Part shown: piece by piece, positions 498 to 55,996 of the stretch
How positions within the stretch are numbered: position 1 is the first letter of the stretch
Layout of the letters: each line of letters starts with the position of its first letter
DNA from: Seriola aureovittata
Taxonomy: Eukaryota > Chordata > Actinopteri > Carangiformes > Carangidae
DNA: 64,000 bases
NCBI RefSeq assembly: GCF_021018895.1
Contig: NC_079379.1
Coordinates: 25,226,276-25,290,275 of the forward strand
Direction of reading: 5' to 3'
Notes under the pieces: generated by a model
Seen by the model: only the letters and a program-made list of their open reading frames with translations
Told to the model about the DNA's origin: nothing
Database searches by the model: none
Program-made: the position numbers and the translations under genes

Positions 498-2990
<2,493 letters not shown>

Positions 2991-13972: not shown

Positions 13973-14962
13973 ATGCGGTGCAGTCACGTGCTGCTGTCCG
14001 TCTACATCCTCACCTTCCTGATGGGCGTTCCCGCCAACATCCTGGCATTCTGCACCTTCTGCCGCAAGGTGCACCGGAGGGCGACCCCAATAGACATCCT
14101 GCTCCTCAACCTCACCATCTCCGACCTCATCTTCCTCGCCTTCCTGCCCTTTAAGATGAAGGAGGCGTCGGACGACATGGCCTGGCTGCTGCCCTTCCCC
14201 CTCTGTCCCTTCACGGGCTTCCTGTTCTACGTCACCATCTACAACAGCACCCTGCTGCTCACAGCTGTGAGCGTGGAGCGTTACCTGGGGGTGGCGTTCC
14301 CCCTCAGGTACTCCCTGTGTCGCAGGCCTCGCTACGCCGTGCTGGCCAGCCTCATGTTCTGGGTGGTGACCTCCCTGAACCTCAGCATCGTCTACATCAT
14401 CCCCTACGCCCAGTGGAGAAAAGGTGCAGACGGTGACAGCAACACCAGCAGAAGCAGCCCCGCCCCTCCTCCACCCACCTGCTACCTGAATTTCACTGAG
14501 GACGAGTTGAAGATCGTGCTGCCGGTCCGCTTGGAGCTCTTCCTCGTCCTCTTCTGCATCCCCTTCTTCATCTGCTGCTTCTGCTACATCAACTTCATCC
14601 TCATCCTCTCACGTCTTCCAAACATCGGCCGGCGGCGGAGGCTGCGTGCCATAGGCCTGGCGCTCGGCACGCTGATGGTGTTCGCCGTCTGCTTTGGGCC
14701 TTACAACGCCTCCCACGTGGTGGGGTTTGTGCGGAAGGAGAGCGAGGAGTGGAGGAACATGGCGCTGCTCTCCAGCACCTTCAACGCCTGCCTGGATCCA
14801 TTCATCTTCTACTTCTCCTCAGCAGCCGTCAGGAGCATGTTGAACCACTGCTGCAGGAGCATCATGGCGAAGCTGCACATCCTGAGGTGTGGGGGGGCTC
14901 CTCACCGCTCTCACCAGAGACCCCCCAAGACTGACAAGTACAAGGAAGCAGCCCCTCCTTGA
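13973..14962 (+). CDS. Free fatty acid receptor-like GPCR (FFAR2/FFAR3 type)
   Basis: Class A GPCR of 329 aa in one coding exon, ending TGA at 14960. The family senses short-chain fatty acids at the plasma membrane through Gi/Gq. Seen: TM1 with GVPAN (18-22), TM2 LNLTISDL (45-52), ERY at 102-104 after TM3 and the family motif ERYLGVAFPLRY, PVRLE in TM5, CFGPYNASHVVG in TM6-7 and NACLDPFIFYF in TM7. The carboxylate-binding residues of mammalian FFAR2 (Arg180, His242, Arg255) align with Arg186, His248 and Arg261. Extracellular loop 2 carries an unusual Ser/Pro-rich stretch (about 151-169). The start is the first Met, 3 residues before TM1, with context GCCATCATG. An acceptor at about 13940 (TTTGGTCCAG) suggests an upstream noncoding exon. 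The fish paralogue number is not assigned. Confidence 0.88.
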   Translation: MRCSHVLLSVYILTFLMGVPANILAFCTFCRKVHRRATPIDILLLNLTISDLIFLAFLPFKMKEASDDMAWLLPFPLCPFTGFLFYVTIYNSTLLLTAVSVERYLGVAFPLRYSLCRRPRYAVLASLMFWVVTSLNLSIVYIIPYAQWRKGADGDSNTSRSSPAPPPPTCYLNFTEDELKIVLPVRLELFLVLFCIPFFICCFCYINFILILSRLPNIGRRRRLRAIGLALGTLMVFAVCFGPYNASHVVGFVRKESEEWRNMALLSSTFNACLDPFIFYFSSAAVRSMLNHCCRSIMAKLHILRCGGAPHRSHQRPPKTDKYKEAAPP

Positions 14963-15345: not shown

Positions 15346-17440
15346 AAGTTCAGGAGAAATTTGAGATAAACCAATCACTGTCCTAGTCTCACATTTAGCG
15401 GGATTGGCATTGTTTCACTCTGGAAAAAGTGCATGCTGGGAAGTCTGCTAATACGCCGGTAGTGTTTTTTAGAAACTTAATTTAATGAGACGTTCATTCA
15501 GTCAACTCCTCATTTCAAGATGGAGGAACTCGTGTTTATAAGTTCTGAAGTGGTCTGAAAATAAAACCTGGAAATGTAACTTCAATTAACTTGATGTTGA
15601 TAAAAACGTAAATGTTAATTTTAAGAAATTATTAGTTAATTCCACAAAATTTCTGCTTATAATTCATCTTTATATTTCTCTACAGTTACAAACCACAGTG
15701 TGAGTTCTGCGCTGTCTGACCTTTGGTTCAGATGAAACAGGAAACTGTCCCTTCATACGTTCAGTTTCCTGTTAAACACACGTTTCTGTGACTCAGAGAA
15801 AAAACCAGGACACTGTTTAATCACAGATGAGAGTTTTACAGGTGTGACGGATGAAGCAATTAAACCCAGGGGATGTTAGAGTACATAAGCAGGAAGTGGA
15901 GACTGAACACTGTCAAGTTAATATGGAGTCATAAGCACAGACAACAGGAAGAGTAAACACAGAGATTACACAGCGCTGTGGTGAAGAGCAGTTATACAGT
16001 GAGTCTGTTTCTGGTCTGAGCGACTTCAAACAGGGTCGACTGATATGATAACCGCCCTCCCGCCATTTCCTGTCAGTAATAACGGAGGCAGCGCTCCTCT
16101 GCAGGTGGAGTGCACGTAGATAACATCCTTTATAGTGTCCTGTTGTGTGCTGCAGGGACATCAGCTCAGCAGTGCGTGTTCGTTTATTAGTTCAGTGTGT
16201 ACAGTTTATAAGACGTTTAATGAAGCTGTTGACTGTTGGCTGCAGCTGATGTTGTTGTGATGTGGTGTAATAAGATCATTCAGCTGAATGTTTAATATTA
16301 GGCTTATTGCTTTCCGGTCGAACCATATGATGATACACAATTCACACACTGTATTTATGAGTCCTATAATAATTTGATTTAATAACTTTTTTATCAGTGT
16401 TAGATGATGGTGACATGTTGTTCAGTCTTCAGCTGCAACTCTAAAACCCCCGGATGCTGTCGACCGCTCTGCTCTCAGGTTCATTACTGCTGATGCCTGT
16501 AACAAGGTTGGATGAGGCCGGATTTTATGTATTTATTTATAAGGCCCTTATTTAAAATCTGCTTGTGGTTGCTTTTTTTTACACCGTCCACCTTTAACTC
16601 ACTAAAAAGCAGTTTAAAAATGAATTTGTTGGTAGATTTTTAGTCTCTGACCTTTGACCTTGATTCTTGTTTTAATTAGATGTCCTATTTTAACTGGTGT
16701 TTTTATCTGCTCGACCTCATTGTAAATGAGGGCTTTACCTTCAGTGATTTTCGAGTTTAAATAAAGACATATAAATAATTTCTGAAATGTAACTGTAATT
16801 ATTGGGTCACAACAGTGACAGTAAGACAGCTTGACTTAAAATGGAAACAATGGCACTGTAAAAGTGAAAAAGTTGTATTGGCACTGAAAAATGTTCCACT
16901 GAAAAATAAAACATCTGCATTAAAATTAAACGTCAGTCTTACAATCTTAACTTTTCATTTTTAATACATTTTTATTTGAACATTTTAATTTTGAAATTCT
17001 TTTAATTAAGATGTTTTTCGATATAAATCTTCAGATATTTTCTTCATTTTTTCCAGTAATAATTATTTTTGTGCTCTCACTATTGCTTCACTGGTTTTCA
17101 CTTTCAACTTTCTGACACTTTCTGACACTTACCATAAGTGTGATTCTCTCTCCCGGTGTTTCTTCACATAGGTAGGACTGGGTTAATGTTAGCCTTAAAT
17201 GGACGTTATGCTGTTCTGGCAGAGGTCCACTGGAGCAAGAGCTAATGGTAGCTAATACAAGTTAGTTAGCTAACCTGTAGTTAAAAACCTGCCCATTTCC
17301 TCCTGCACAACTTGTTTTGGGGATTGAGCATGACTATTATACGACTTGCGTCTTATGACACATCCATGGGTTTGGCCTTAAACTCCTACTGAACAAAACA
17401 CGTCACAGGGCGGGAAACTCAACAACCATAAACCACAGGT
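15346..17440. other. Intergenic, repeats only
   Basis: No gene recognised between the FFAR-like receptor and the satellite, apart from a retroelement tail near 16640-16775. The minus-strand ORF at 15913-16161 has no family resemblance. Confidence 0.55.
16480..16775 (+). mobile_element. 3' remnant of a non-LTR retrotransposon
   Basis: Ends with GCTCGACCTCATTGTAAATG, AGGGCTTTACCTTCAGTGAT and TTTCGAGTTTAAATAAAG, a tail I recognise as the 3' end of a widespread fish retroposon. No coding frame survives upstream. Confidence 0.55.
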
Positions 17441-18454
17441 TACCAGTCTATACTATTTTATGACATTTTATACCTAAATTTACTATGAATTTTTAAACCT
17501 TACTAGATTACATTTTTAATGAATTTTTATACCTACTCATATACTTCTTATGCCTTACTATACTATAACCTTTTATGTCTTACTATACTATGACTTTTTA
17601 TTCTTTCCTATACAATGATTGTTTTATGACTTTTTATGCCTTACTATAGTTTGACATTTTATGTCTTACTGTAATATGACTTTTTATACCTTACTATACT
17701 ATGACTTTTTATTCCTTACGATACTATGACTTTTTACTCCTTACTATACTGTGACTTTTTATTCTTTCCTATAGGATGATTATTTTATGACTTTTTATGC
17801 CTTACTATAATATGAGTTTTTATGGCTTACTTTATTTTGACTTTTTATACCTTACTATAGTATGACTTTTTACTCCATTCTATATTATGACTTTTTATGC
17901 CTTACTATAGTTTGACATTTTATACCTTATGATACTATGACCTTTTATGCCTTAATTTACTATGACTTTTTATGAATTTTTATGCATTATTATAATAAGA
18001 GGTTTTCATGACTTTTCATACTTACAATACCATGTCTTTTTATGCCTTACTATACTATGACTTTTTATGCCTTACTATACTATGACTTTTTATACCTTAC
18101 TATACTGACTTTTTATGCATTATAATAACAGGTTTTTATGACTTTTTATGCCTTACTATACTATGACTATTTATTCCTAACTATACAATGACTTTTTATA
18201 CCTTACTATACTATGACTTTTTAGGACTTTTTACGCCTTACTATAGTTTGACATTTTATGCCTTACTATACTATGACTTTTTATACCTTACTATACTGAC
18301 TTTATATGCCTTACTATACTATGACTTTTTATGCCTTACTATACTCTGACTTTTTATTACTTACTATACTATGACTTTTTATTACTTACTATACTATGAC
18401 TTTTTATGCCTTACTATACTATGACGTTTTTTTTAACTTTTTATTCCTTGCTAT

Positions 18455-21400
18455 ACTATGACCTTTTATGTCTTACTATACTATGACCTTTTATGACTTT
18501 TTAAGCCTTAATATAATATGACTTTTTATGCCTTACTATACTATGACTTTTTATGACTTTTTATGCCTTACTATACTATGACTTTTTATGCCTTACTTTA
18601 CTATGACTTTTTATTACTTACTATACTATGACTTTTTTTATGACTTTTTATACCTAACTATACTATGACTTTTATACCTAACTATACTATGACTTTTTAT
18701 TACTTACTATACTATGATTTTTATGCCTTTTTATACCTTACTATACTATGACGTTTTTTATGACTTTTTATACCTTACTATACTATGACTTTTTATGACT
18801 TTTTATGCCTTACTATACTATGACTTTTTTTATGACTTTTATACCTTACTATACTATGACTTTTTATGCCTTACTATACTATGACTTTTTATGACTTTTT
18901 ATGCTTACTATACTATGATGTTTTTTATGACTTTTTATAACTTACTATACTATGACGTTTTTTATGACTTTTATACCTTACTATACTATGACTTTTTATG
19001 CCTTACTAAACTATGACTTTTTATGACTTTTTATGCCTTACTATACTATGATGTTTTTTATGACTTTTTATACCTTACTATACTATGACGTTTTTTAATA
19101 CTTTTTATGCCTTACTATAATCTGACTTTTTATGCCTTACTATACTATGACTTTTTATGACTTTTTATACCTTACTATACTATGACGTTTTTTATGACTT
19201 TTTATACCTTACTATACTATGACTTTTTATGCCTCACTAAACTATGAATTTTTATGCCTTACTATACTATGACTTTTTATGACTTTTTATGCCTTACTAT
19301 ACTATGACTTTTTATGCCTTACTATACTATGACTTTTTATGACTTTTTATGCCTTACTATACTATGACGTTTTTTATGACTTTTTATGCCTTACTATACT
19401 ATGACTTTTTATGCCTTACTATACTATGACTTTTTATTCTTTCCTATACAATGATTGTTTTATGACTTTTTATGCCTTACTATACTATGACTTTTTATTA
19501 CTTACTATACTATGACTTTTTTTATGACTTTTTATACCTAACTATACTATGACTTTTATTCCTTACTATACTATGACTTTTTATTACTTACAATACTATG
19601 ACTTTTTATGCATTACTATACTATGACGTTTTTGATGACTTTTTATAACTTACTATACTATGACGTTTTTTATGACTTTTTATGCCTTACTATACTATGA
19701 TTTTTATGCCTTACTATACTATGACTTTTTATGCCTTACTATACTATGACTTTTTATACCTTACTATACTATGACGTTTTTTATGACTTTTTATGCCTTA
19801 CTATACTATGACGTTTTTTATGACTTTTTATACCTTACTATACTATGACTTTTTATGCCTTACTATACTATGACTTTTTATACCTTACTATACTATGATG
19901 TTTTTTATGACTTTTTATACCTTACTATACTATGACGTTTTTTATTACTTTTTATGCCTTACTATACTATGACTTTTTATGACTTTTTATGCCTTACTAT
20001 ACTATGATGTTTTTTATGACTTTTTATACCTTACTATACTATGACTTTTTATTACTTTTTATGCCTTACTATACTATGATGTTTTTTATGACTTTTTATA
20101 CCTTACTATACTATGACGTTTTTTAATACTTTTTATGCCTTACTATAATCTGACTTTTTATGCCTTACTATACTATGACTTTTTATGACTTTTTATACCT
20201 TACTATACTATGACTTTTTATGCCTAACTAAACTATGAATTTTTATGCCTTACTATACTATGACTTTTTATGACTTTTTATGCCTTACTATACTATGACT
20301 TTTTATGACTTTTTATGCCTTACTATACTATGACTTTTTATGACTTACTATACTATGACTTTTTATGACTTTTTATACCTTACTATACTATGACGTTTTT
20401 TATGACTTTTTATACCTTACTATACTATGACTTTTTATGACTTTTTATGCCTTACTATACTATGACGTTTTTTATGACTTTTTATACCTTACTATACTAT
20501 GACGTTTTTTATGACTTTTTATGCCTTACTATACTATGACTTTTTATACCTTACTATACTCTGACTTTTTTTTTGACTTTTTATGCCTTACTATTCTATG
20601 ACTTTTTATACCTTACTATACTATGATGTTTTTTATGACTTTTTATGCCTTACTATACTATGACGTTTTTTATGACTTTTTATACCTTATTATACTATGA
20701 CTTTTTATGCCTTGCTATACTATGACTTTTTATGACTTTTTATACCTTACTATACTATGACATTTTTTATGACTTTTTATGCATTACTATACTATGACTT
20801 TTTATGCCTTACTATACTATGACGTTTTTTATGACTTTTTATACCTTACTATACTATGACGTTTTTTATGACTTTTTATGCCTTACTATACTATGACGTT
20901 TTTTATGACTTTTTATACCTTACTATACTATGACTTTTTATGCCTCACTAAACTATGAATTTTTATGCCTTACTATACTATGACTTTTTATGACTTTTTA
21001 TACCTTACTATACTATGACTTTTTTTATGACTTTTTATGCCTTACTATACTATGACGTTTTTTATGACTTTTTATACCTTACTATACTATGACGTTTTTA
21101 TGACTTTTTATGCCATACTATACTATGACTTTTTATACCTTACTATAGTCGGACTTTTTTTTTTACTTTTTATGCCTTACTATTCTATGACTTTTTATAC
21201 CTTACTATACTATGATGTTTTTTATGAGTTTTTATGCCTTACTATACTATGACGTTTTTTATGACTTTTTATACCTTACTATACTATGACGTTTTTTATG
21301 ACTTTTTATGCCTTACTATACTATGACGTTTTTTATGACTTTTTATACCTTATTATACTCTGACTTTTTTTATGACTTTTTATGCCTTACTATACTATGA

Positions 21401-24400
21401 CTTTTTATTACTTACTATACTATGACTTTTTTTATGACTTTTTATACCTAACTATACTAGGACTTTTATTCCTTACTATACTATGACTTTTTATTACTTA
21501 CAATACTATGACTTTTTATGCATTACTATACTATGACGTTTTTTATGACTTTTTATGCCTTACTATACTATGATTTTTATGCCTTACTATACTATGACTT
21601 TTATGCCTTACTATACTATGACTTTTTATGCCTTACTATACTATGACTTTTTATACCTTACTATACTATGACGTTTTTTATGACTTTTTATGCCTTACTA
21701 TACTATGACGTTTTTTATGACTTTTTATACCTTACTATACTATGACTTTTTATGCCTTACTATACTATGACTTTTTATACCTTACTATACTATGATGTTT
21801 TTTATGACTTTTTATACCTTACTATACTATGACGTTTTTTATTACTTTTTATGCCTTACTATACTATGACTTTTTATGACTTTTTATGCCTTACTATACT
21901 ATGATATTTTTTATGACTTTTTATACCTTACTATACTATGACTTTTTATTACTTTTTATGCCTTACTATACTATGATGTTTTTTATGACTTTTTATACCT
22001 TACTATACTATGACGTTTTTTAATACTTTTTATGCCTTACTATAATCTGACTTTTTATGCCTTACTATACTATGACTTTTTATGACTTTTTATACCTTAC
22101 TATACTATGACTTTTTATGCCTAACTAAACTATGAATTTTTATGCCTTACTATACTATGACGTTTTTTATGACTTTTTATGCCTTACTATACTATGACTT
22201 TTTATTCTTTCCTATACAATGATTGTTTTATGACTTTTTATGCCTTACTATACCATGACGTTTTTTAAGACTTTTTATGCCTTACTATACTCTGACGTTT
22301 TTTATGACTTTTTATGACTTTTTATACCTTACTATACTATGACTTTTTATGACTTTTTATTCCTTACTATACTATGACTTTTTTATGCCTTACTATACTA
22401 TGACTTTTTATTACTTACTATACTATGACTTTTTATGACTTTTTATGCCTTACGATACTATGACGTTTTTTATGACTTTTTATGCATTACTATACTATGA
22501 CTTTTTATGCCTTACTATACTATGACGTTTTTTATGACTTTTTATGCATTACTATACTATGACTTTTTATGCCTTACTATACTATGACGTTTTTTATGAC
22601 TTTTTATGCCTTACTATACTATGACTTTTTATGACTTTTTATGCCTTACGATACTATGACGTTTTTTATGACTTTTTATGCATTACTATACTATGACTTT
22701 TTATGCCTTACTATACTATGACGTTTTTTATGACTTTTTATGCCTTACTATACTATGACGTTTTTTATGACTTTTTATACCTTACTATACTATGACCTTT
22801 TATGTCTTACTATACTATGACCTTTTATGACTTTTTAAGCCTTAATATAATATGACTTTTTATGCCTTACTATACTATGACTTTTTATGACTTTTTATGC
22901 CTTACTATACTATGACTTTTTATGCCTTACTATACTATGACTTTTTATTACTTACTATACTATGACTTTTTTTATGACTTTTTATACCTAACTATACTAT
23001 GACTTTTTATACCTAACTATACTATGACTTTTTATTACTTACTATACTATGATTTTTATGCCTTATTATACTATGACTTTTTATACTTACTATACTATGA
23101 CGTTTTTTATGACTTTTTATACCTTACTATACTATGACTTTTTATGACTTTTTATGCCTTACTATACTATGACTTTTTTTATGACTTTTATACCTTACTA
23201 TACTATGACTTTTTATGCCTTACTAAACTATGACTTTTTATGACTTTTTATGCCTTACTATACTATGATGTTTTTTATGACTTTTTATAGCTTACTATAC
23301 TATGACGTTTTTTATTACTTTTTATGCCTTACTATACTATGACTTTTTATGCCTTACTATACTATGACTTTTTATGACTTTTTATGCCTTACTATACTAT
23401 GATGTTTTTTATGACTTTTTATACCTTACTATACTATGACGTTTTTTAATACTTTTTATGCCTTACTATAATCTGACTTTTTATGCCTTACTATACTATG
23501 ACTTTTTATGACTTTTTATACCTTACTATACTATGACGTTTTTTATGACTTTTTATACCTTACTATACTATGACTTTTTATGCCTCACTAAACTATGACA
23601 TTTTTTATGCCTTACTATACTATGACTTTTTATGACTTTTTATGCCTTACTATACTATGACTTTTTATGCCTTACTATACTATGACTTTTTATGACTTTT
23701 TATGCCTTACTATACTATGACGTTTTTTATGACTTTTTATGCCTTACTATACTATGACTTTTTATGCCTTACTATACTATGACTTTTTATTCTTTCCTAT
23801 ACAATGATTGTTTTATGACTTTTTATGCCTTACTATACTATGACTTTTTATTACTTACTATACTATGACTTTTTTTATGACTTTTTATACCTAACTATAC
23901 TATGACTTTTTATTCCTTACTATACTATGACTTTTTATTACTTACAATACTATGACTTTTTATGCATTACTATACTATGACGTTTTTGATGACTTTTTTA
24001 TAACTTACTATACTATGACGTTTTTTATGACTTTTTATGCCTTACTATACTATGATTTTTATGCCTTACTATACTATGACTTTTTATGCCTTACTATACT
24101 ATGACTTTTTATACCTTACTATACTATGACGTTTTTTATGACTTTTTATGCCTTACTATACTATGACGTTTTTTATGACTTTTTATACCTTACTATACTA
24201 TGACTTTTTATGCCTTACTATACTATGACTTTTTATACCTTACTATACTATGATGTTTTTTATGACTTTTTATACCTTACTATACTATGACGTTTTTTAT
24301 TACTTTTTATGCCTTACTATACTATGACTTTTTATGACTTTTTATGCCTTACTATACTATGATATTTTTTATGACTTTTTATACCTTACTATACTATGAC

Positions 24401-27150
24401 TTTTTATTACTTTTTATGCCTTACTATACTATGATGTTTTTTATGACTTTTTATACCTTACTATACTATGACGTTTTTTAATACTTTTTATGCCTTACTA
24501 TAATCTGACTTTTTATGCCTTACTATACTATGACTTTTTATGACTTTTTATACCTTACTATACTATGACTTTTTATGCCTAACTAAACTATGAATTTTTA
24601 TGCCTTACTATACTATGACTTTTTATGACTTTTTATGCCTTACTATACTATGACTTTTTATGACTTTTTATGCCTTACTATACTATGACTTTTTATGACT
24701 TACTATACTATGACTTTTTATGACTTTTTATACCTTACTATACTATGACGTTTTTTATGACTTTTTATACCTTACTATACTATGACTTTTTATGACTTTT
24801 TATGCCTTACTATACTATGACGTTTTTTATGACTTTTTATACCTTACTATACTATGACGTTTTTTATGACTTTTTATGCCTTACTATACTATGACTTTTT
24901 ATACCTTACTATACTCTGACTTTTTTTTTTACTTTTTATGCCTTACTATTCTATGACTTTTTATACCTTACTATACTATGATGTTTTTTATGAGTTTTTA
25001 TGCCTTACTATACTATGACGTTTTTTATGACTTTTTATACCTTATTATACTATGACTTTTTATGCCTTGCTATACTATGACTTTTTATGACTTTTTACAC
25101 CTTACTATACTATGACATTATTTATGACTTTTTATGCATTACTATACTATGACTTTTTATGCCTTACTATACTATGACGTTTTTTATGACTTTTTATACC
25201 TTACTATACTATGACGTTTTTTATGACTTTTTATGCCTTACTATACTATGACGTTTTTTATGACTTTTTATACCTTACTATATTATGACTTTTTATGCCT
25301 CACTGAACTATGACTTTTTATGCCTTACTATACTATGACTTTTTATGACTTTTTATACCTTACTATACTATGACTTTTTTTATGACTTTTTATGCCTTAC
25401 TATACTATGACGTTTTTTATGACTTTTTATACCTTACTATACTATGACGTTTTTTATGACTTTTTATGCCATACTATACTATGACTTTTTATACCTTACT
25501 ATAGTCGGACTTTTTTTTTTACTTTTTATGCCTTACTATTCTATGACTTTTTATACCTTACTATACTATGATGTTTTTTATGAGTTTTTATGCCTTACTA
25601 TACTATGACGTTTTTATGACTTTTTATACCTTACTATACTATGACGTTTTTATGACTTTTTATGCCTTACTATACTATGACGTTTTTATGACTTTTTATA
25701 CCTTATTATACTCTGACTTTTTTTATGACTTTTTATGCCTTACTATACTATGACTTTTTATTACTTACAATACTATGACTTTTTTATGACTTTTTATACC
25801 TAACTATACTATGACTTTTTATACCTTACTATACTATGACTTTTTATTACTTACAATACTATGACTTTTTATGCATTACTATACTATGACGTTTTTATGA
25901 CTTTTTATGCCTTACTATACTATGATTTTTTATGCCTTACTATACTATGACTTTTTATGCCTTACTATACTATGACTTTTTATGCCTTACTATACTATGA
26001 CTTTTTATACCTTACTATACTATGACGTTTTTATGACTTTTTATGCCTTACTATACTATGACGTTCTTTATGACTTTTATACCTTACTATACTATGACTT
26101 TTTATGCCTTACTATACTATGACTTTTTATACCTTACTATACTATGATGTTTTTTATGACTTTTTATACCTTACTATACTATGACGTTTTTTATTACTTT
26201 TTATGCCTTACTATACTATGACTTTTTATGACTTTTTATGCCTTACTATACTATGATATTTTTTATGACTTTTTATACCTTACTATACTATGACTTTTTA
26301 TTACTTTTTATGCCTTACTATACTATGATGTTTTTTATGACTTTTTATACCTTACTATACTATGACGTTTTTTAATACTTTTTATGCCTTACTATAATCT
26401 GACTTTTTATGCCTTACTATACTATGACTTTTTATGACTTTTTATACCTTACTATACTATGACTTTTTATGCCTACTATACTATGAATTTTTATGCCTTA
26501 CTATACTATGACGTTTTTATGACTTTTTATGCCTTACTATACTATGACTTTTTATTCTTTCCTATACAATGATTGTTTTATGACTTTTTATGCCTTACTA
26601 TACCATGACGTTTTTTAAGACTTTTTATGCCTTACTATACTCTGACGTTTTTTATGACTTTTTATACCTTACTATACTATGACTTTTTATGACTTTTTAT
26701 TCCTTACTATACTATGACTTTTTATGCCTTACTATACTATGACTTTTTATTAGTTACTATACTATGACTTTTTATGACTTTTTATGCCTTACGATACTAT
26801 GACGTTTTTATGACTTTTTATGCATTACTATACTATGACTTTTTATGCCTTACTATACTATGACGTTTTTATGACTTTTTATGCATTACTATACTATGAC
26901 TTTTTATGCCTTACTATACTATGACGTTTTTATGACTTTTTATGCCTTACTATACTATGACTTTTTATGACTTTTTATGCCTTACGATACTATGACGTTT
27001 TTATGACTTTTTATGCATTACTATACTATGACTTTTTATGCCTTACTATACTATGACGTTTTTATGACTTTTTATGCCTTACTATACTATGACGTTTTTT
27101 ATGACTTTTTATACCTTACTATACTATGACGTTTTTTATGACTTCTTATG
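18455..27150 (+). repeat. Two tandem copies of a ~4.35-kb higher-order satellite unit
   Basis: Rare variant monomers recur in the same order at an almost constant offset: ACCTTTTATGTCTTAC at 18461 and 22795, TAAGCCTTAATATAATATG at 18502 and 22836, TATTCTTTCCTATACAATG at 19435 and 23789 and again at 22203 and 26553, and TAGTCGGAC at 21146 and 25502. Offsets are 4334-4356 bp. The boundary between the copies is near 22.8 kb. Confidence 0.85.
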
Positions 27151-27599
27151 CCTTACTATACTATGACGTTTTTTATGACTTTTTATACCTTACTATATTA
27201 TGACTTTTTATGCCTCACTGAACTATGACTTTTTATGCCTTACTATACTATGACTTTTTATGACTTTTTATACCTTACTATACTATGACTTTTTTATGAC
27301 TTTTTATGCCTTACTATACTATGACGTTTTTTATGACTTTTTATACCTTACTATACTATGACGTTTTTTATGACTTTTTATGCCATACTATACTATGACT
27401 TTTTATACCTTACTATAGTCGGACTTTTTTTTTTACTTTTTATGCCTTACTATTCTATGACTTTTTATACCTTACTATACTATGATGTTTTTTATGAGTT
27501 TTTATGCCTTACTATACTATGACGTTTTTTATGACTTTTTATACCTTATTATACTCTGACTTTTTTATGACTTTTTATGCCTTACTTACTATACTATGA

Positions 27600-29050
27600 C
27601 TTTTTATGCCTTGCTATACTATGACTTTTTATGACTTTTTATGCCTTACTATACTATTAAGTTTTTTATGACTTTTTATGACTTTTTATGCCTTACTATA
27701 CTATTACGTTTTTTATGACTTTTTATGACTTTTTTATGCCTTACTATACTATGACTTTTTATGCCTTACTATACTATGACTTTTTATGACTTTTTATACC
27801 TTACTATACTATGACGTTTTTTATGACTTTTTATGCCTTACTATAATATGACTTTTTATGACTTTTTATGCATTACTATACTATGACGTTTTTTATGACT
27901 TTTTATGACTTTTTATACCTTACTATACTATGACGTTTTTTATGACTTTTTATGCCTTACTATACTATGACTTTTTATGACTTTTTATTCCTTACTATAC
28001 TATGACTTTTTATGCCTTACTATACTATGACTTTTTATTAGTTACTATACTATGACTTTTTATGACTTTTTATGCCTTACTATACTATGACTTTTTATGA
28101 CTTTTTATGCCTTACGATACTATGACGTTTTTATGACTTTTTATGCATTACTATACTATGACTTTTTATGCCTTACTATACTATGACGTTTTTATGACTT
28201 TTTATGCATTACTATACTATGACTTTTTATGCCTTACTATATATGACTTTTTATGACTTTTTATGCATTACTATACTATGACGTTTTTTATGACTTTTTA
28301 TGACTTTTTATACCTTACTATACTATGACGTTTTTTATGACTTTTTATGCCTTACTATACTATGACGTTTTTTATGACTTTTTATACCTTATTATACTCT
28401 GACTTTTTTTATGACTTTTTATGCCTTACTATACTATGACTTTTTATGCCTTGCTATACTATGACTTTTTATGACTTTTTATGCCTTACTATACTATGAT
28501 TTTTTATACCTTACTATACTATGACATTTTTTATGACTTTTTATACCTTACTATACTATGACTTTTTATGACTTTTTATGCCTTACTATACTATTAAGTT
28601 TTTTATGACTTTTTATGACTTTTTATGCCTTACTATACTATTACGTTTTTTATGACTTTTTATGACTTTTTATGCCTTACTATACTATGACTTTTTATGC
28701 CTTACTATACTATGACTTTTTATGACTTTTTATACCTTACTATACTATGACGTTTTTTATGACTTTTTATGCCTTACTATAATATGACTTTTTATGACTT
28801 TTTATGCATTACTATACTATGACGTTTTTTATGACTTTTTATGACTTTTTATACCTTACTATACTATGACGTTTTTTATGACTTTTTATGCCTTACTATA
28901 CTATGACTTTTTATGACTTTTTATTCCTTACTATACTATGACTTTTTATGCCTTACTATACTATGACTTTTTATTAGTTACTATACTATGACTTTTTATG
29001 ACTTTTTATGCCTTACTATACTATGACTTTTTATGACTTTTTATGCCTTA
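27600..29050 (+). repeat. ~936-bp higher-order duplication in the satellite
   Basis: The variants TATTAAGTTTTTTATG (27655 and 28592) and TATTAGTTACTATAC (28036 and 28972) repeat at offsets of 937 and 936 bp. This is a second, shorter duplication level. Confidence 0.75.
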
Positions 29051-30239
29051 CGATACTATGACGTTTTTTATGACTTTTTATGCCTTACTATACTATGACT
29101 TTTTATGCCTTACTATACTATGACGTTTTTTATGACTTTTTATGCATTACTATACTATGACTTTTTATGCCTTACTATACTATGACGTTTTTTATGACTT
29201 TTTATACCTTACTATACTATGACGTTTTTTATGACTTTTTATGCCTTACTATACTATGACGTTTTTTATGACTTTTTATACCTTACTATATTATGACTTT
29301 TTATGCCTCACTGAACTATGACTTTTTATGCCTTACTATACTATGACGTTTTTTATGACTTTTTATACCTTACTATACTATGACTTTTTATACCTTACTA
29401 TACTCTGACTTTTTTTTTTACTTTTTATGCCTTACTATTCTATGACGTTTTTTATGACTTTTTATGCCTTACTATACTATGACTTTTTATACCTTACTAT
29501 ACTCTGACTTTTTTTTTTACTTTTTATGCCTTACTATTCTATGACTTTTTATACCTTACTATACTATGATGTTTTTTATGAGTTTTTATGCCTTACTATA
29601 CTATGACGTTTTTTATGACTTTTTATACCTTATTATACTATGACTTTTTATGCCTTGCTATACTATGACTTTTTATGACTTTTTATGCCTTACTATACTA
29701 TGACTTTTTACACCTTACTATACTATGACATTATTTATGACTTTTTATACCTTACTATACTATGACGTTTTTATGACTTTTTATGCCTTACTATACTATG
29801 ACTTTTTATGCCTTACTATACTATGACGTTTTTTATGACTTTTTATACCTTACTATACTATGACTTTTTATGCCTTGCTATACTATGACATTTTTTATGA
29901 CTTTTTATACCTTACTATACTATGACTTTTTATGACTTTTTATGCCTTACTATACTATGACTTTTTATGCCTTACTATACTATGACTTTTTATGACTTTT
30001 TATACCTTACTATACTATGACGTTTTTTATGACTTTTTATGCCTTACTATAATATGACTTTTTATGACTTTTTATGCATTACTATACTATGACGTTTTTT
30101 ATGACTTTTTATGACTTTTTATACCTTACTATACTATGACGTTTTTTATGACTTTTTATGCCTTACTATACTATGACTTTTTATGCCTTACTATAATATG
30201 ACTTTTTATGACTTTTTATGCCTTACTATACTCTGACTT

Positions 30240-33200
30240 TTTATGACTTTTTATGCCTCACTATTCTATGACTTTTTATACCTCACTATACTATGATGTT
30301 TTTTATGACTTTTTATGCCTTACTATACTGACGTTTTTTATGACTTTTTATGCCTTACTATACTATGACTTTTTATGCCTTACTATACTATGACTTTTTA
30401 TGACTTTTTATACCTTACTATACTATGACTTTTTATGACTTTTTATGCTTTACTATACTATGACTTTTTATGCCTTACTATATTATGACTTTTTTTTTCT
30501 TTTTATGCCTTACTATACTATGACTTTTTTTTTCTTTTTATGCCTTACTATACTATGACGTTTTTTATGACTTTTTATGCCTTACTATACTATGACTTTT
30601 TATGCCTTACTATACTATGACGTTTTTTATGACTTTTTATACCTTACTATACTATGACTTTTTATGACTTTTTATGCCTTACTATACTATGACTTTTTAT
30701 GCCTTACTATACTATGACTTTTTATGACTTTTTATACCTTACTATACTATGACGTTTTTTATGACTTTTTATGCCTTACTATACTATGACGTTTTTTATG
30801 ACTTTTTATGCCTTACTATACTATGACTTTTTATTCCTAACTATAATATGACTTTTTATGACTTTTTATGCATTACTATACTATGACGTTTTTTATGACT
30901 TTTTATGCCTTACTATACTATGACTTTTTATGCCTTACTATACTATGACTTTTTATGCCTTACTATACTATGACCTTTTATGACTTTTTAAGCCTTACTA
31001 TACTATGACTTTTTATGCCTTACTATACTATGACCTTTTATGACTTTTTAAGCCTTACTATACTATGACTTTTTATGCCTTACTATACTGTAACGTTTTT
31101 TATACCTTACTATACTATGATGTTTTTTATGACTTTTTATGCCTTACTATACTATGACTTTTTATGCCTTACTATACTATGACTTTTTATGACTTTTTAT
31201 ACCTTACTATACTATGACGTTTTTTATGACTTTTTATACCTTACTATACTATGACGTTTTTATGACTTTTTATGCCTTACTATACTATGACTTTTTATGC
31301 CTTACTATACTATGACTTTTTATGACTTTTTATACCTTACTATACTATGACCTTTTATGACTTTTTATGCTTACTATACTATGACTTTTTATGCCTTACT
31401 ATATTATGACTTTTTATGCCTTACTATACTATGACTTTTTATGACTTTTTATACCTTACTATACTATGACTTTTTATGCCTTACTATACTCTGACTTTTT
31501 TTTTGACTTTTTATGCCTTACTATTCTATGACTTTTTATACCTTACTATACTATGATGTTTTTTATGACTTTTTATGCCTTACTATACTATGACGTTTTT
31601 AATGACTTTTTATGCCTTACTATATTATGACTTTTTATGCCTTACTATACTATGACTTTTTATGACTTTTTATACGTTACTATACTATGACTTTTTATGC
31701 CTTACTATACTCTGACTTTTTTTATGACTTTTTATGCCTCACTATTCTATGACTTTTTATACCTCACTATACTATGATGTTTTTTATGACTTTTTATGCC
31801 TTACTATACTGACGTTTTTTATGACTTTTTATGCCTTACTATACTATGACTTTTTATGCCTTACTATACTATGACTTTTTATGACTTTTTATGCGTTACT
31901 ATACTATGACGTTTTTTATGACTTTTTATACCTTACTATACTATGACGTTTTTTATGACTTTTTATGCCTTACTATACTATGACTTTTTTTTACTTTTTA
32001 TGCCTTACTATACTATGACTTTTTTTTTCTTTTTATGCCTTACTATACTATGACGTTTTTTATGACTTTTTATGCCTTACTATACTATGACTTTTTATGC
32101 CTTACTATACTATGACGTTTTTTATGACTTTTTATACCTTACTATACTATGACTTTTTATGACTTTTTATGCCTTACTATACTATGACTTTTTATGCCTT
32201 ACTATACTATGACTTTTTATGACTTTTTATACCTTACTATACTATGACGTTTTTTATGACTTTTTATGCCTTACTATACTATGACGTTTTTTATGACTTT
32301 TTATGCCTTACTATACTATGACTTTTTATTCCTAACTATAATATGACTTTTTATGACTTTTTATGCATTACTATACTATGACGTTTTTTATGACTTTTTA
32401 TGCCTTACTATACTATGACTTTTTATGCCTTACTATACTATGACTTTTTATGCCTTACTATACTATGACGCTTTTATGACTTTTTATGCCTTACTATACT
32501 ATGACTTTTTATGCCTTACTATACTATGACCTTTTATGACTTTTTAAGCCTTACTATACTATGACTTTTTATGCCTTACTATACTGTAACGTTTTTTATG
32601 ACTTTTTATACCTTACTATACTATGATGTTTTTTATGACTTTTTATGCCTTACTATACTATGACTTTTTATGCATTACTATACTATGACTTTTTATGACT
32701 TTTTATACCTTACTATACTATGACGTTTTTTATGACTTTTTATACCTTACTATACTATGACGTTTTTATGACTTTTTATGCCTTACTATACTATGACTTT
32801 TTATGCCTTACTATACTATGACTTTTTATGACTTTTTATACCTTACTATACTATGACTTTTTATGACTTTTTATGCTTTACTATACTATGACTTTTTATG
32901 CCTTACTATATTATGACTTTTTATGCCTTACTATACTATGACTTTTTATGACTTTTTATACCTTACTATACTATGACTTTTTATGCCTTACTATACTCTG
33001 ACTTTTTTTTTGACTTTTTATGCCTTACTATTCTATGACTTTTTATACCTTACTATACTATGATGTTTTTTATGACTTTTTATGCCTTACTATACTATGA
33101 CGTTTTTAATGACTTTTTATGCCTTACTATACTATGACTTTTTTTTACTTTTTATGCCTTACTATACTATGACTTTTTTTTACTTTTTATGCCTTACTAT

Positions 33201-33500
33201 ACTATGACGTTTTTTATGACTTTTTATGCCTTACTATACTATGACTTTTTATGCTTTACTATACTATGACGTTTTTTATGACTTTTTATACCTTACTATA
33301 CTATGACTTTTTATGACTTTTTATGCCTTACTATACTATGACTTTTTATGCCTTACTATACTATGACTTTTTATGACTTTTTATACCTTACTATACTATG
33401 ACGTTTTTTATGACTTTTTATGCCTTACTATACTATGACGTTTTTTATGACTTTTTATGCCTTACTATACTATGACTTTTTATTCCTAACTATAATATGA
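30240..33500 (+). repeat. ~1.49-kb higher-order duplication in the satellite
   Basis: CTCACTATTCTATG at 30257 and 31738, CCTAACTATAATATG at 30836 and 32331, and CTGTAACG at 31089 and 32584 give offsets of 1481-1495 bp. A further partial copy follows at shorter spacing (CCTAACTATAATATG at 33485, CTGTAACG at 33688). Confidence 0.75.
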
Positions 33501-36500
33501 CTTTTTATGACTTTTTATGACTTTTTATGCATTACTATACTATGACGTTTTTTATGAGTTTTTATGCCTTACTATACTATGACTTTTTATGCCTTACTAT
33601 ACTATGACTTTTTATGCCTTACTATACTATGACCTTTTATGACTTTTTAAGCCTTACTATACTATGACTTTTTATGCCTTACTATACTGTAACGTTTTTT
33701 ATGACTTTTTATACCTTACTATACTATGATGTTTTTTATGACTTTTTATGCCTTACTATACTATGACTTTTTATGCCTTACTATACTATGACTTTTTTTT
33801 TGACTTTTTATACCTTACTATACTATGACGTTTTTTATGACTTTTTATACCTTACTATACTATGACGTTTTTATGACTTTTTATGCCTTACTATACTATG
33901 ACTTTTTATTCCTAACTATAATATGACTTTTTATGACTTTTTATGCATTACTATACTATGACGTTTTTTATGAGTTTTTATGCCTTACTATACTATGACT
34001 TTTTATGCCTTACTATACTATGACTTTTTATGCCTTACTATACTATGACCTTTTATGACTTTTTTTATGCCTTACTATACTATGACTTTTTATGCCTTAC
34101 TAATACTATGACTTTTTATGACTTTTTATGACTTTTTATACCTTACTATACCATGACGTTTTTTATGACTTTTTATGCCTTACTATACTATGACTTTTTA
34201 TGCCTTACTATACTATGACTTTTTATGACTTTTTATGCCTTACTATACTATGACTTTTTATGCCTTACTATAATATGACTTTTTATGACTTTTTATACCT
34301 TACTATACCATGACGTTTTTTAAGACTTTTTATGCCTTACTATACTCTGACGTTTTTTATGACTTTTTATACCTTACTATACTATGACTTTTTATGACTT
34401 TTTATTCCTTACTATACTATGACTTTTTATGCCTTACTATACTATGACTTTTTATTAGTTACTATACTATGACTTTTTATGACTTTTATGCCTTACGATA
34501 CTATGACGTTTTTATGACTTTTTATGCATTACTATACTATGACTTTTTATGCCTTACTATACTATGACGTTTTTATGACTTTTTATGCATTACTATACTA
34601 TGACTTTTTATGCCTTACTATACTATGACGTTTTTTATGACTTTTTATACCTTACTATACTATGACGTTTTTTATGACTTTTTATGCCTTACTATACTAT
34701 GACGTTTTTTATGACTTTTTATACCTTACTATATTATGACTTTTTATGCCTCACTGAACTATGACTTTTTATGCCTTACTATACTATGACGTTTTTTATG
34801 ACTTTTTATACCTTACTATACTATGACGTTTTTTATGACTTTTTATGCCTTACTATACTATGACGTTTTTTATGACTTTTTATACCTTATTATACTCTGA
34901 CTTTTTTTATGACTTTTTATGCCTTACTATACTATTACGTTTTTTATGACTTTTTATGACTTTTTATGCCTTACTATACTATGACTTTTTATGCCTTACT
35001 ATACTATGACTTTTTATGACTTTTTATACCTTACTATACTATGATGTTTTTTATGACTTTTTATGCCTTACTATAATATGACTTTTTATGACTTTTTATG
35101 CATTACTATACTATGACGTTTTTTATGACTTTTTATGACTTTTTATACCTTACTATACTATGACGTTTTTTATGACTTTTTATGCCTTACTATACTCTGA
35201 CTTTTTTTATGACTTTTTATGCCTTACTATACTCTGACTTTTTTTATGACTTTTTATGCCTTACTATACTATGACGTTTTTAATGACTTTTTATGCCTTA
35301 CTATACTATGACTTTTTTTTACTTTTTATGCCTTACTATACTATGACTTTTTTTTTCTTTTTATGCCTTACTATACTATGACGTTTTTTTATGACTTTTT
35401 ATGCCTTACTATACTATGACTTTTTATGCCTTACTATACTATGACTTTTTATGACTTTTTATACCTTACTATACTATGACTTTTTATGACTTTTTATGCT
35501 TTACTATACTATGACTTTTTATGCCTTACTATATTATGACTTTTTATGCCTTACTATACTATGACTTTTTATGACTTTTTATACCTTACTATACTATGAC
35601 TTTTTATGCCTTACTATACTCTGACTTTTTTTTTGACTTTTTATGCCTTACTATTCTATGACTTTTTATACCTTACTATACTATGATGTTTTTTATGACT
35701 TTTTATGCCTTACTATACTATGACGTTTTTAATGACTTTTTATGCCTTACTATACTATGACTTTTTTTTACTTTTTATGCCTTACTATACTATGACTTTT
35801 TTTTTCTTTTTATGCCTTACTATACTATGACGTTTTTTTATGACTTTTTATGCCTTACTATACTATGACTTTTTATGCCTTACTATACTATGACGTTTTT
35901 TATGACTTTTTATACCTTACTATACTATGACTTTTTATGACTTTTTATGCCTTACTATACTATGACTTTTTATGCCTTACTATACTATGACTTTTTATGA
36001 CTTTTTATACCTTACTATACTATGACGTTTTTTATGACTTTTTATGCCTTACGATACTATGACGTTTTTTATGACTTTTTATGCCTTACTATACTATGAC
36101 TTTTTATTCCTAACTATAATATGACTTTTTATGACTTTTTATGCATTACTATACTATGACGTTTTTTATGAGTTTTTATGCCTTACTATACTATGACTTT
36201 TTATGACTTTTTTGCCTTACTATACTATGACTTTTTATGCCTTACTATACTATGACCTTTTATGACTTTTTAAGCCTTACTATACTATGACTTTTTATGC
36301 CTTACTATACTGTAACGTTTTTTATGACTTTTTATACCTTACTATACTATGATGTTTTTTATGACTTTTTATGCCTTACTATACTATGACTTTTTATGCC
36401 TTACTATACTATGACTTTTTATGACTTTTTATACCTTACTATACTATGACGTTTTTTATGACTTTTTATACCTTACTATACTATGACTTTTTATGACTTT

Positions 36501-39500
36501 TTATGCCTTACTATACTATGACTTTTTATTCCTTACTATACTATGACTTTTTATGACTTTTTATGCATTACTATACTATGACGTTTTTTATGAGTTTTTA
36601 TGCCTTACTATACTATGACTTTTTATGCCTTACTATACTATGACTTTTTATGCCTTACTATACTATGACCTTTTATGACTTTTTAAGCCTTACTATACTA
36701 TGACTTTTTATGCCTTACTATACTGTAACGTTTTTTATGACTTTTTATACCTTACTATACTATGATGTTTTTTATGACTTTTTATGCCTTACTATACTAT
36801 GACTTTTTTGCCTTACTATACTATGACTTTTTATGACTTTTTATGCCTTACTATACTATGACTTTTTATGACTTTTTATGCCTTACTATAATATGACTTT
36901 TTATGACTTTTTATACCTTACTATACCATGACGTTTTTTAAGACTTTTTATGCCTTACTATACTCTGACTTTTTTATGACTTTTTATACCTTACTATACT
37001 ATGACTTTTTATGACTTTTTATTCCTTACTATACTATGACTTTTTATGCCTTACTATACTATGACTTTTTATGCTTTAGTATACTATGACTTTTTATGAC
37101 TTTTTATGACTTTTTATGCCTTACTATACTATGACGTTTTTTATGACTTTTTATGCATTACTATACTATGACTTTTTATGCCTTACTATACTATGACGTT
37201 TTTTATGACTTTTTATGCATTACTATACTATGACTTTTTATGCCTTACTATACTATGACGTTTTTTATGACTTTTTATACCTTACTATACTATGACTTTT
37301 TATGACTTTTTATGACTTTTTATGCCTTACTATACTATGACGTTTTTTATGACTTTTTATACCTTACTATACTATGACTTTTTATGCCTCACTATACTAT
37401 GACTTTTTATGCCTTACTATACTATGACGTTTTTTATGACTTTTTATACCTTACTATACTATGACGTTTTTTATGACTTTTTATGCCTTACTATACTATG
37501 ACGTTTTTTATGACTTTTTATACCTTAATATACTATGATTTTTATGACTTTTTATGACTTTTTATGCCTTACTATACTATTACGTTTTTTATGACTTTTT
37601 ATGACTTTTTATGACTTTTTATGCCTTACTATACTATGACTTTTTATGCCTTACTATACTATGACTTTTTATGACTTTTTATACCTTACTATACTATGAT
37701 GTTTTTTATGACTTTTTATGCCTTACTATAATATGACTTTTTATGACTTTTTATGCATTACTATACTATGACGTTTTTTATGACTTTTTATGCCTTACTA
37801 TAATATGACTTTTTATGACTTTTTATGCCTTACTATACTCTGACTTTTTATGACTTTTTATTCCTTACAATACCATGTCTTTTTATTCCTTACTATACTA
37901 TGACTTTTTATGCCTTACTATACTATGACTTTTTATGACTTTTTATTCCTTACAATACCATGTCTTTTTATTCCTTACTATACTATGACTTTTTATGCCT
38001 TACTATAATATGACTTTTTATGACTTTTTATGCATTACTATAATATGACTTTTTATGACTTTTTATGCCTTACTATACTATGACGTTTTTTATGACTTTT
38101 TATGCCTTACTATAATATGACTTTTTATGACTTTTTATGCCTTACTATACTATGACTTTTTATGACTTTTTATTCCTTACAATACCATGTCTTTTTATTC
38201 CTTACTATACTATGACTTTTTATGCTTTACTATACTATGACTTTTTATGCTTTAGTATACTATGACTTTTTATGCCTTACTATACTATGACTTTTTATTC
38301 CTTATGATACTATGACTTTTTATTCCTTACTATACTGAATTTTTACGCTTTTCTGCAATATAACTTTACATGCCTTACTATACTATGAATTTTAATGCCT
38401 TACTGTAATAAGACATTTTATGCTTTATTATACTATGCCTTTTCATGACTTTTATGCCTTACTATAGTATGAATTTTCATTACTTTTTATACCTTAATAT
38501 ACTATGATTTTTCATGGTTTACTATACTATGACTTTTTATGCCTTACTATAATATGAAATTTTATATTATCTATGTCAAAATGTTACCATCACTGTTCTA
38601 GCCCCATACTGTTTTGAGTAAGTCAGTTACACTGGTGATTGTAAGTAATATGGCGAGTGTAGCATCTTAATCTGGATGTTTTAATTTCCCCTAAAAATAT
38701 ATTTCTCACTGTTGTCTCAAATTTGTTATATTTTCTTCAGAGAGAAAAAAACATTACATAAATTGGGAAATTTTCCTCAGCCGTTTTACAAAACTCAGAT
38801 AGTTCACAAGTAAATTTGTTTAACATATGACTTAACATATTTATCACATTATTATAAATCTGCTTAACACTTTGAGGTATTGATCCCTGATGTTTATTTT
38901 TCATGAAATGAGTCTCAACTGTATTTGTGTATTAAGTTTTCTGATTCTCTGGAAAATTCAACTACAAGCGTCTTCACTTCTTTCTGAATTTTTTCATTTC
39001 CTGTAATGAGGGAAGAAACTGTCCAAATACCAAAAACAAACTCACGTTTCATACATAGAGTATTTATTCAAAAAATTAAATATAACAACCAAATAAAAAG
39101 GCTCAACTTAGGACCAGGATCAGATGAGTGTTAAGACAAAAAAAAAACTGTTTTACTTCTAAAAGTGACACCATTTCATCATCAGGCAAAAAAAAACAAC
39201 AAAAGCACATGAAAATACTGTGAAACCCAAACCTCCATTTTGTTTCTGAGTGTGGTGATATGCAGCCAACCACAGATTTGTTTTTGTGGGGAGACGGGCA
39301 CTTAAAGAACTACCCCAAGTCTGTAAACTTCTAAATTTCACATTAGAAGCAGAAAAACTAAAACCATAAAGAGGTTTGATAGTGACATGCAAACACAGAG
39401 GGAAGGCCAGGCAAACCGACTGCACAGAAACTTAATGATTGCTTCATTATTGCCGTTCATCTGAGAATGAACCATAAATTAAACTCTGAGGGAGGAAAAC

Positions 39501-39763
39501 AGGCAGTAATAGAGGGGTCACGTCCCAATAGAGATAAGGTTAAATAAATAATGCTACATAATGTCTACACTGAATTACTCTTCACCTACAGAGTCTTGAA
39601 TATTCCCCTAATCTATTTTCTTTGATTCAGAAATCTAAGTTTGTGGGTTTGTGCTTCAAAGTGCCCGTCCACTAAAAACTGATCCCCACAGGCCTTTTGG
39701 TCCTGCAGCTCCAAACTGATCAGTTCTGCATATTATGTGTTCTTGGCATATGTCAGAGGTACT

Positions 39764-39800
39764 CACACACACACACACACACACGCATGCACACACACAC
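39764..39800 (+). repeat. (CA)n microsatellite
   Basis: About 37 bp of CA repeats with a short GCATG interruption. Confidence 0.9.
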
Positions 39801-40457
39801 CTTACAGTATTGTCATGTATCAATATATACTTGTTAATGTAGACTTTCTGAATGTTAAGATTTCTTTGATTTACTTGTTTTTTTTCAGCACCATCAGAAA
39901 AGGCACAGTCTGTTAACGGACCGGTCGACGAACTTTCAACCCTCCTCCTTCTCTTCTGAGGAAAATGCAAAAATAATTTTAAAAAATGATGAAGTTTGAG
40001 AAACATATGAAACCCCATCAGAATAAAAGTCTTTCACCTCTCTGATGAGCTACTGAGATGATAAAATGACAGAGTAAAGGGAGGTCGTCACTGTGGAGGA
40101 GGGTTGATGGTTCATCGCCGTGACAACACGACCGCCAACAATCTCCACAAAGCAGCAAATGCATCACTTTTGCTTTTCACACACAAGTATTGCATCATCA
40201 AATTTGGAAAAAATGATCACAGACCACTTTGATTATTAAATGCCATATTTCAACACAGCTTCTGCTTCAAATAGGACTTTGTTAGAAAAAATAAGTGGTG
40301 TGCATTTACATTAGTATCTTTAAATATAAATATATCTCCGTTCAGATTAAAAATGCTTCTGTTTGTGAGGAAAAAGGCGACTGCAGGTCGATTTACTGTG
40401 AGTGGCATCATGACAGGAAAAGGGATTTCCATAATAAGGCTCTCTCTATATATTACA

Positions 40458-40600
40458 GAGGAGGATTAGGGCCATGTGAATTTTTTTTTTTTTTTTCACT
40501 TTAAATCTCAGAATTCTGACATTAAAAATTTTAATTTTCTCAAAATCCTGATTTTTAATCTCTTGAATAAGGTTTTTTCACATGGCCCTAATCCTCTTCC
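40458..40600. mobile_element. MITE copy 2 with a perfect 20-bp inverted repeat
   Basis: GAGGATTAGGGCCATGTGAA on the left is matched exactly in reverse complement on the right (TTCACATGGCCCTAATCCTC). The inside is about 100 bp, AT-rich, with CTCAGAATTCTG and a poly-T run, and is noncoding. Same family as 8643-8812. No clear target-site duplication could be settled. Confidence 0.85.

Positions 40601-43220: not shown

Positions 43221-55996
<12,776 letters not shown>

What the first reader, a model, noticed from the sequence alone, without database searches (positions are those of the whole stretch)
17447..38565. 21-kb satellite array with three interconvertible monomer lengths
One array makes up a third of the window. 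Its 25-, 35- and 37-bp monomers differ only by whole TTTTTATGAC or GTTTTTTATGAC modules before the final TTTTTATG. The longer types therefore look like internal slippage products of the basic unit. Orientation never flips and no transposon has inserted, which suggests rapid turnover. I cannot match it to a named satellite.
Basis: seen in the sequence. Interest (0 to 1): 0.75.

Follow-up and report, generated by a model that had tools for sequence, protein, structure and literature searches.

The report
Fish minisatellite array, block-duplicated
A 21-kb stretch of short DNA repeats lying between ordinary genes in an amberjack-like fish, in which a few repeat lengths arise by small internal changes and then spread as the array copies kilobase-sized blocks of itself; it is a tidy example of a familiar kind of repeat rather than a new system.

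Summary
The array is real: about 17447-38565, one orientation, no foreign insertion found. The main classes differ exactly as described.

The 35-bp unit is what one duplication of the TATG-flanked 10-bp unit would give, and 10-bp gains and losses are seen between aligned duplicates. Class changes are uncommon: 12 of 290 anchored monomer pairs, 1 of 160 by a narrower count. Length order is mostly inherited in blocks: the longest repeated class string is 111 monomers against 9-14 in shuffles, and 18447-22780 and 22781-27114 are adjacent 4334-bp copies. 35- and 37-mers seem linked by one- or two-base changes, not 12-bp slippage.

The array lies between a free-fatty-acid-receptor-3-like gene (100% identical to Seriola dumerili) and opposite-strand argonaute exons. 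I judge it an ordinary, unnamed, gene-flanked minisatellite built by slippage plus unequal exchange. No function is shown. Genome-wide distribution was not testable: the genome search did not complete.

The parts
17447..38565 (+). Tandem array of 25/35/37 (and 45/47) bp monomers, single orientation, about 25% GC, T-tracts on + strand only
17447..18446 (+). Left edge: diverged copies, mostly 25-bp (28 of 37 monomers in 17441-18446); identity about 0.85-0.90 to templates
   Evidence: 17441-18394 lies outside every >=97%, >=300 bp internal duplicate
18447..22780 (+). Block A of a 4334-bp tandem duplication
   Evidence: 136 monomer pairs, 98.9%; 22 substitutions, 28 indels
22781..27114 (+). Block B of the same 4334-bp tandem duplication
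22281..22327 (+). 47-bp monomer with an extra TTTTTATGAC relative to its 37-bp counterpart at 26631
33486..33530 (+). 45-bp monomer that shares a rare head with the 35-bp monomer at 30837 and differs from it by one 10-bp module
31079..31105 (+). 27-bp monomer lacking 10 bp relative to the 37-bp monomer with the same rare head at 32575
25594..27059 (+). Stretch with clustered one-base T losses in T6 runs (11 of 14 G-T modules have T5 against 9 of 167 elsewhere; bounds chosen after seeing the data): suspected assembly or polishing error
38176..38565 (+). Right edge: diverged copies, mostly 25-bp (13 of 16 monomers in 38176-38600)
13973..14962 (+). Free fatty acid receptor 3-like GPCR gene, left neighbour
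   Evidence: PF00001; 100% to Seriola dumerili
45598..52347 (-). Argonaute gene exons (ArgoN in the ORF 52009-52347, Piwi in the ORFs 46262-46558 and 45598-45981), right neighbour, pointing towards the array

Best explanation
This is a non-coding minisatellite (short-unit satellite) array in the convergent intergenic space between a free fatty acid receptor 3-like gene and an argonaute gene of an amberjack-like fish. Likely steps: (1) a 25-bp unit, TATGACTTTT-TATGCCTTAC-TATAC, was amplified in tandem; (2) strand slippage between the two TATG copies 10 bp apart duplicated (and now and then lost) the 10-bp unit in some monomers, giving 35 bp and, on repetition, 45 bp; (3) 35-bp monomers gained a G and a longer T run to give 37 bp, and a further 10-bp duplication in 37-mers gave 47 bp; (4) unequal sister-chromatid exchange (or break-induced replication or gene conversion) duplicated runs of monomers of about 0.4-4.3 kb, spreading the mixed-length order through the interior while the edges were left old and diverged. 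Shown from sequence: the anatomy, the block duplications, the edge/interior contrast, and a handful of 10-bp and one- or two-base length changes between aligned duplicates. Inferred: the recombination mechanism, the order and direction of the steps, and the absence of a sequence-specific function.
For: Anatomy. Edge/interior gradient: template identity 0.853 and 0.849 in the outermost bins (0.903 in the second) against 0.916-0.977 in the rest; 41 of 53 edge monomers are 25 bp against 220 of 609 inside. Block duplication: longest repeated class string 111 monomers against 9-14 in 20 shuffles; longest run of identical monomers 17 against 3-4; adjacent 4334-bp copies with 22 substitutions and 28 indels; 82% of 17441-38600 lies in self-matches of at least 300 bp and 97%. 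Slippage: of 12 class-different pairs among 290 anchored ones (no pair passed in 5 shuffles), I read seven as changes of about 10 bp; three of the seven share one monomer, 36182, so about five events. In all 16 two-module monomers the distal module is the 10-bp one (11 LM, 5 MM, 0 ML, 0 LL), as expected if the 10-bp unit at the tail is what duplicates. Gene neighbours.
Against: Class changes are not negligible: 12 of 290, 6 of 197 or 19 of 347 by cut-off, all but one of the 12 to the right of 30 kb. My first anchored count (1 of 160) was biased low, because its flanks stopped at any class difference. A looser alignment gave 144 class-different pairs of 1008: 73 of 420 in an over-chained block with 147 gap monomers, but also 69 of 452 in the 14 smaller blocks, one of them ungapped with 3 of 17 (33230-33776 against 36276-36811); some of these are surely real. 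Long monomers already occur at the edges (12 of 53), so 25-mer-first is not proven. The 10-bp self-similarity of the 25-mer is weak once all shifts are allowed for (p = 0.12).
Confidence: 0.78

Rival explanations
1. A genome-wide (for example pericentromeric or subtelomeric) satellite of which this is one outlying array.
For: The length (21 kb), the single orientation and the higher-order blocks are satellite-like. Reviews describe satellite arrays outside heterochromatin (passages of PMC10048060). Three other minisatellites lie in the same window, a clustering sometimes seen near chromosome ends (recalled).
Against: It lies between apparently ordinary genes, and no TTTTTATGAC occurs elsewhere in the window (0). 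Copy number genome-wide was not testable: seven genome-search requests did not complete.
Confidence: 0.2
2. Free, frequent slippage interconverts 25-, 35- and 37-mers, so lengths reflect local equilibrium rather than descent.
For: The classes differ by whole modules. 12 of 290 anchored pairs differ in class, with apparent gains and losses of the 10-bp module. A loose alignment lists 144 class-different pairs of 1008.
Against: 278 of 290 anchored pairs keep their class; a class string of 111 monomers is repeated unchanged; no re-duplication of the 12-bp module in 16 two-module monomers.
Confidence: 0.1
3. The large internal duplications are partly assembly artefacts.
For: The two 4334-bp blocks are adjacent and of equal length. 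One-base T losses cluster at 25594-27059, 11 of 14 against 9 of 167 (bounds chosen after seeing the data), which looks like residual homopolymer error.
Against: The blocks differ by 22 substitutions spread along their length and 28 indels, too many for a simple duplicated contig. Other duplications of over 350 bp lie between about 18.7 and 36.7 kb (28 matches listed).
Confidence: 0.1
4. The array is kept for a DNA-shape or protein-binding role (paired T-tracts one helical turn apart, or hundreds of copies of one binding site).
For: 403 of 416 T-tract pairs closer than 15 bp are 9.5-11 bp apart; 10.0 and 10.5 bp are the commonest close spacings. A simplified wedge model gives a higher mean bend than shuffles at 31, 60 and 120 bp. 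TTTTTATGAC occurs 336 times, all on one strand.
Against: At 120 bp the 95th percentile is already below shuffles (1.101 against 1.111), and at 240 bp the mean is too (1.088 against 1.091-1.111), so bends largely cancel. The spacing is inherited by copying, so it is no sign of selection. No binding or expression data.
Confidence: 0.05

Closest known systems
Interspersed-variant minisatellites (VNTR / minisatellite variant repeats; recalled)
   Same: Short units, a few variant types interspersed along one locus, order inherited in runs, gene-flanked location
   Different: Variant types here differ in length by whole modules as well as by substitutions; the array is far longer than most described minisatellites (recalled); allelic variation not tested
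Higher-order-repeat satellite DNA such as alpha satellite (PMC8122249, passages and section 4.2 read)
   Same: Multi-monomer blocks copied as units; a homogenised interior with older edges is also a common picture (recalled)
   Different: 25-47 bp units rather than about 171 bp (recalled); irregular, nested block lengths (about 0.4-4.3 kb) instead of one regular higher-order period; no centromere link shown
Euchromatic satellite DNA arrays (PMC10048060, passages read)
   Same: Tandem non-coding repeats among genes
   Different: Many of those described are short, dispersed and inside transposons; here one long array with no transposon link found. Dispersal not tested

Membership tests
Minisatellite / short-unit satellite DNA | Head-to-tail tandem units of roughly 10-100 bp | tested here: met
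Minisatellite / short-unit satellite DNA | Non-coding | tested here: met
   No stop-to-stop ORF of at least 90 aa lies within the array; transcription not tested
Minisatellite (VNTR) | Copy number varies between alleles | not testable with these tools
   one assembly only
Higher-order-repeat array | Multi-monomer blocks more alike than neighbouring monomers | tested here: met
   (irregular rather than one fixed period)
Genome-wide / pericentromeric satellite | Many arrays or one heterochromatic block per chromosome | not testable with these tools
Already named satellite | Unit sequence in print or in a repeat library | tested here: inconclusive
   Full-text search for tatgactttttatg gave 1 paper, a hantavirus mouse study (listing only). 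Searches for Seriola with satellite DNA (8 papers) or minisatellite (2 papers) listed no title or abstract opening that describes such a repeat; of these only PMC8620147 was looked into (passages: satellite clusters in the roosterfish, no unit sequence in the passages). No repeat library was available
Transposon-derived tandem repeat | Terminal repeats or transposon sequence at the array edges | tested here: inconclusive
   The repeat finder was run separately on 14900-17700 and 38300-42500; left and right flanks were not compared with each other and no TE library was searched

The most novel reading that the evidence does not exclude
The monomer-length series is constrained by DNA helical geometry: only insertions that put a second T-tract one helical turn (10.0 or 10.5 bp) from the resident one persist and spread, so the array is a 21-kb strand-polar string of paired T-tract kinks, possibly acting as a chromatin boundary or homeodomain-type protein sink between two convergent genes.
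Probability: 0.04. Interest if true: 0.6.

Novelty: new member of a known kind. Interest (0 to 1): 0.2.

Why it matters
The array records three scales of tandem-repeat mutation in one sequence: one-base T-run changes, 10-bp module duplication or loss, and 0.4-4.3 kb block duplication. It could serve as a test locus for measuring their relative rates, and perhaps as a hypervariable marker in amberjack aquaculture. It does not point to a new mechanism.

Tried and rejected
Rejected: a coding role (no ORF of at least 90 aa inside the array); a known RNA family or tRNA (0 matches at Rfam gathering scores; 0 by ARAGORN); long-range curvature as a clear signal (simplified model, wedge angles recalled); an ancestral 10-mer behind the 25-mer as proven (p = 0.011 for shift 10 alone but 0.12 over all shifts).

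Replaced: the first BLAST self-comparison, which chained through the repeats at 82-87%, by a stricter one. The first base alignment of the big duplicates (39 substitutions, 32 indels), which ran past the block end, by the exact blocks. The first decomposition (676 monomers) by one that allows two-module monomers (662); the edge-bin identities and the shuffle test still come from the first. The loose block alignments below the best one (142 class-different pairs of 872) were set aside, because common heads and tails let unrelated monomers pair; that discards some real changes.

Searches of viral contigs and prokaryote genome contigs for the 24-base unit found 0, as expected for fish DNA. Papers: passages and section 25 of PMC8122249, passages of PMC10048060 and of PMC8620147 were read; all others were seen in listings only (one search found 0; one search listed 12 of 35).
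Full report
OBSERVATION. Tandem Repeats Finder reports 17625-38565 at period 25 and 18188-38198 at period 37. Diverged copies extend to about 17447 on the left and the last copy ends at about 38565. The 24-base unit with up to 3 mismatches occurs 506 times against 0 in 100 shuffles (200 rows shown). GC falls to about 25%, with strong strand asymmetry, inside the array. The stated module differences between the 25-, 35- and 37-mers are exact.

MONOMERS. A first Viterbi decomposition with three templates gave 676 monomers (287/149/240). It left odd 20-bp remnants, most of which a second decomposition with two-module templates removed (13 down to 1): 662 monomers, 261 of 25 bp, 147 of 35 bp, 238 of 37 bp, 11 of 47 bp and 5 of 45 bp, as classes. 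Mean identity to template is 95.6% overall and 96.2% inside. No interior monomer is more than 7 edits from its template, so no foreign insertion is present there. All 616 core matches are on the + strand and none on the - strand. No minus-strand self-match was found at word size 32.

EDGES. The outermost 20-monomer bins have 0.853 and 0.849 identity to templates, the second 0.903, and all others 0.916-0.977. Of edge monomers (17441-18446 and 38176-38600), 41 of 53 are 25 bp; of interior ones, 220 of 609 (Fisher p = 5.9e-9). Longer monomers are nevertheless present at the edges (12 of 53). This fits the 25-mer being older and the mixed-length interior being younger, but does not prove it.

BLOCK STRUCTURE. 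A strict self-comparison shows a 3.6-kb match at 98.9% at a lag of 4350, and 27 others of more than 350 bp at 96.9-99.5%, including a 632-bp block in four places. At monomer level the best alignment pairs 18447-22780 with 22781-27114, adjacent and both 4334 bp, in 136 pairs with one gap monomer. Base by base they differ by 22 substitutions and 28 indels, 23 of them one-base T changes. The longest repeated class string is 111 monomers against 9-14 in 20 shuffles; the longest identical-monomer run is 17 against 3-4 (first decomposition). 82% of 17441-38600 is covered by another copy at 97% or more over at least 300 bp, and 34% at 98% or more over at least 1000 bp. Both edges and the stretch from 36927 are not covered.

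ARE THE LENGTHS INTERCONVERTIBLE? Three counts were made. (a) A narrow one, with flanks that stop at any class difference: 160 pairs, 1 class change (47 bp at 22281 against 37 bp at 26631, exactly one TTTTTATGAC), 38 edits in same-class pairs, 1 whole-monomer indel. It is biased low. (b) A fairer one, with flanks that tolerate class differences at a penalty: 12 of 290 pairs differ in class; 6 of 197 at a tighter and 19 of 347 at a looser cut-off; no pair passed in 5 shuffles at any cut-off. Same-class pairs differ by 0.0100 edits per base at the middle cut-off. (c) A loose alignment of 16 blocks: 144 of 1008, namely 2 of 136 in the best block, 73 of 420 in a plainly over-chained block with 147 gap monomers, and 69 of 452 in the 14 others. 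One of the 2 in the best block is a 14-bp difference rather than a module. I rely on (b): class changes are real, run in both directions as far as rare heads allow one to tell (gain 30837/33486, loss 32575/31079), and affect about 4% of pairs. Eleven of the 12 lie to the right of 30 kb; the 4334-bp duplicates give only one.

HOW THE CLASSES AROSE. The 25-mer holds TATG twice, 10 bp apart. Slippage between them yields precisely the 35-mer, and again the 45-mer. Of the 12 pairs, I read seven as changes of about 10 bp (three share the monomer at 36182), four as 35/37-class pairs that differ by an inserted G or a longer T run (30414/31895, 30959/32454, 33777/36400, 33851/36472), and one, 34651/37281, as neither. 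So the 37-mer looks like a small derivative of the 35-mer (or the reverse). G-less monomers of the 37-bp class with T7 exist (9 of the 164 that the pattern matched, of 238). In 16 two-module monomers the distal module is always the 10-bp one, so the 12-bp module does not seem to re-duplicate; several of the 16 are copies of each other, so the independent events are fewer.

SURROUNDINGS AND SOURCE. Left neighbour: a free fatty acid receptor 3-like gene, + strand, 13973-14962, 100% identical over 329 aa to Seriola dumerili; the best other named species is at 89% (120 of 1064 hits listed). Hits are clustered at 90%, so another Seriola species cannot be excluded. Right neighbour: argonaute exons on the - strand. 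The array therefore lies in a convergent intergenic interval. No ORF of at least 90 aa lies inside it. No Rfam family at gathering score and no tRNA was found in the window.

POSSIBLE FUNCTION. 1072 T-tracts of 4 or more lie on the + strand and no A-tract of 4 or more. 97% of the 416 tract pairs within 15 bp are 9.5-11 bp apart. A simplified wedge model with recalled angles gives a higher mean bend than shuffles at 31, 60 and 120 bp but a lower one at 240 bp, and a lower 95th percentile already at 120 bp. This does not argue for a large-scale shape. I consider the array most likely without sequence-specific function.

ASSEMBLY. One-base T losses cluster at 25594-27059: 11 of 14 G-T modules have T5 against 9 of 167 elsewhere (Fisher p = 4e-10, but the bounds were chosen after seeing the data). 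14 T's present in block A are missing there in block B, while 3 of the 9 opposite changes also fall there. Residual homopolymer error in that stretch is the simplest reading; real local contraction is not excluded.

LITERATURE. The general mechanism (slippage, unequal crossing-over, concerted evolution) is standard; section 4.2 of PMC8122249 was read. Satellite DNA outside heterochromatin is described in passages of PMC10048060. PMC8620147 (passages) reports satellite DNA as the commonest annotated repeat class in the roosterfish, another carangiform. No paper describing this unit was found by the searches; this covers only the open-licence library, mostly as listings, and no repeat library was available.

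VERDICT.

Noticed in passing
window 25594-27059: Clustered one-base T losses in T6 runs inside the array (11 of 14 against 9 of 167 elsewhere), suggesting residual homopolymer error in the assembly.
   Followed up: partly
window 27600-38000: Length-class changes between anchored duplicates concentrate in the right half of the array (11 of 12 pairs to the right of 30 kb); the two halves may differ in age or turnover.
   Followed up: no
window 7074-8593: A connexin gene is split between two + strand frames, with Pfam profile positions 1-153 in one frame and 154-224 in the other, switching near 7571: a frameshift, either real or an assembly error.
   Followed up: no
window 1327-1816: A separate 14-bp minisatellite, 35 copies at 97%, unit ATGTATGATACATG, nearly palindromic.
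   Followed up: no
window 43366-43594 and 63432-63710: Two more minisatellites with periods of about 10 bp and multiples; four minisatellites in 64 kb may point to a repeat-prone chromosome region.
   Followed up: no
window 40449-40608: A 32-bp inverted repeat with 88% complementary arms 96 bp apart, like a small MITE-type element.
   Followed up: no
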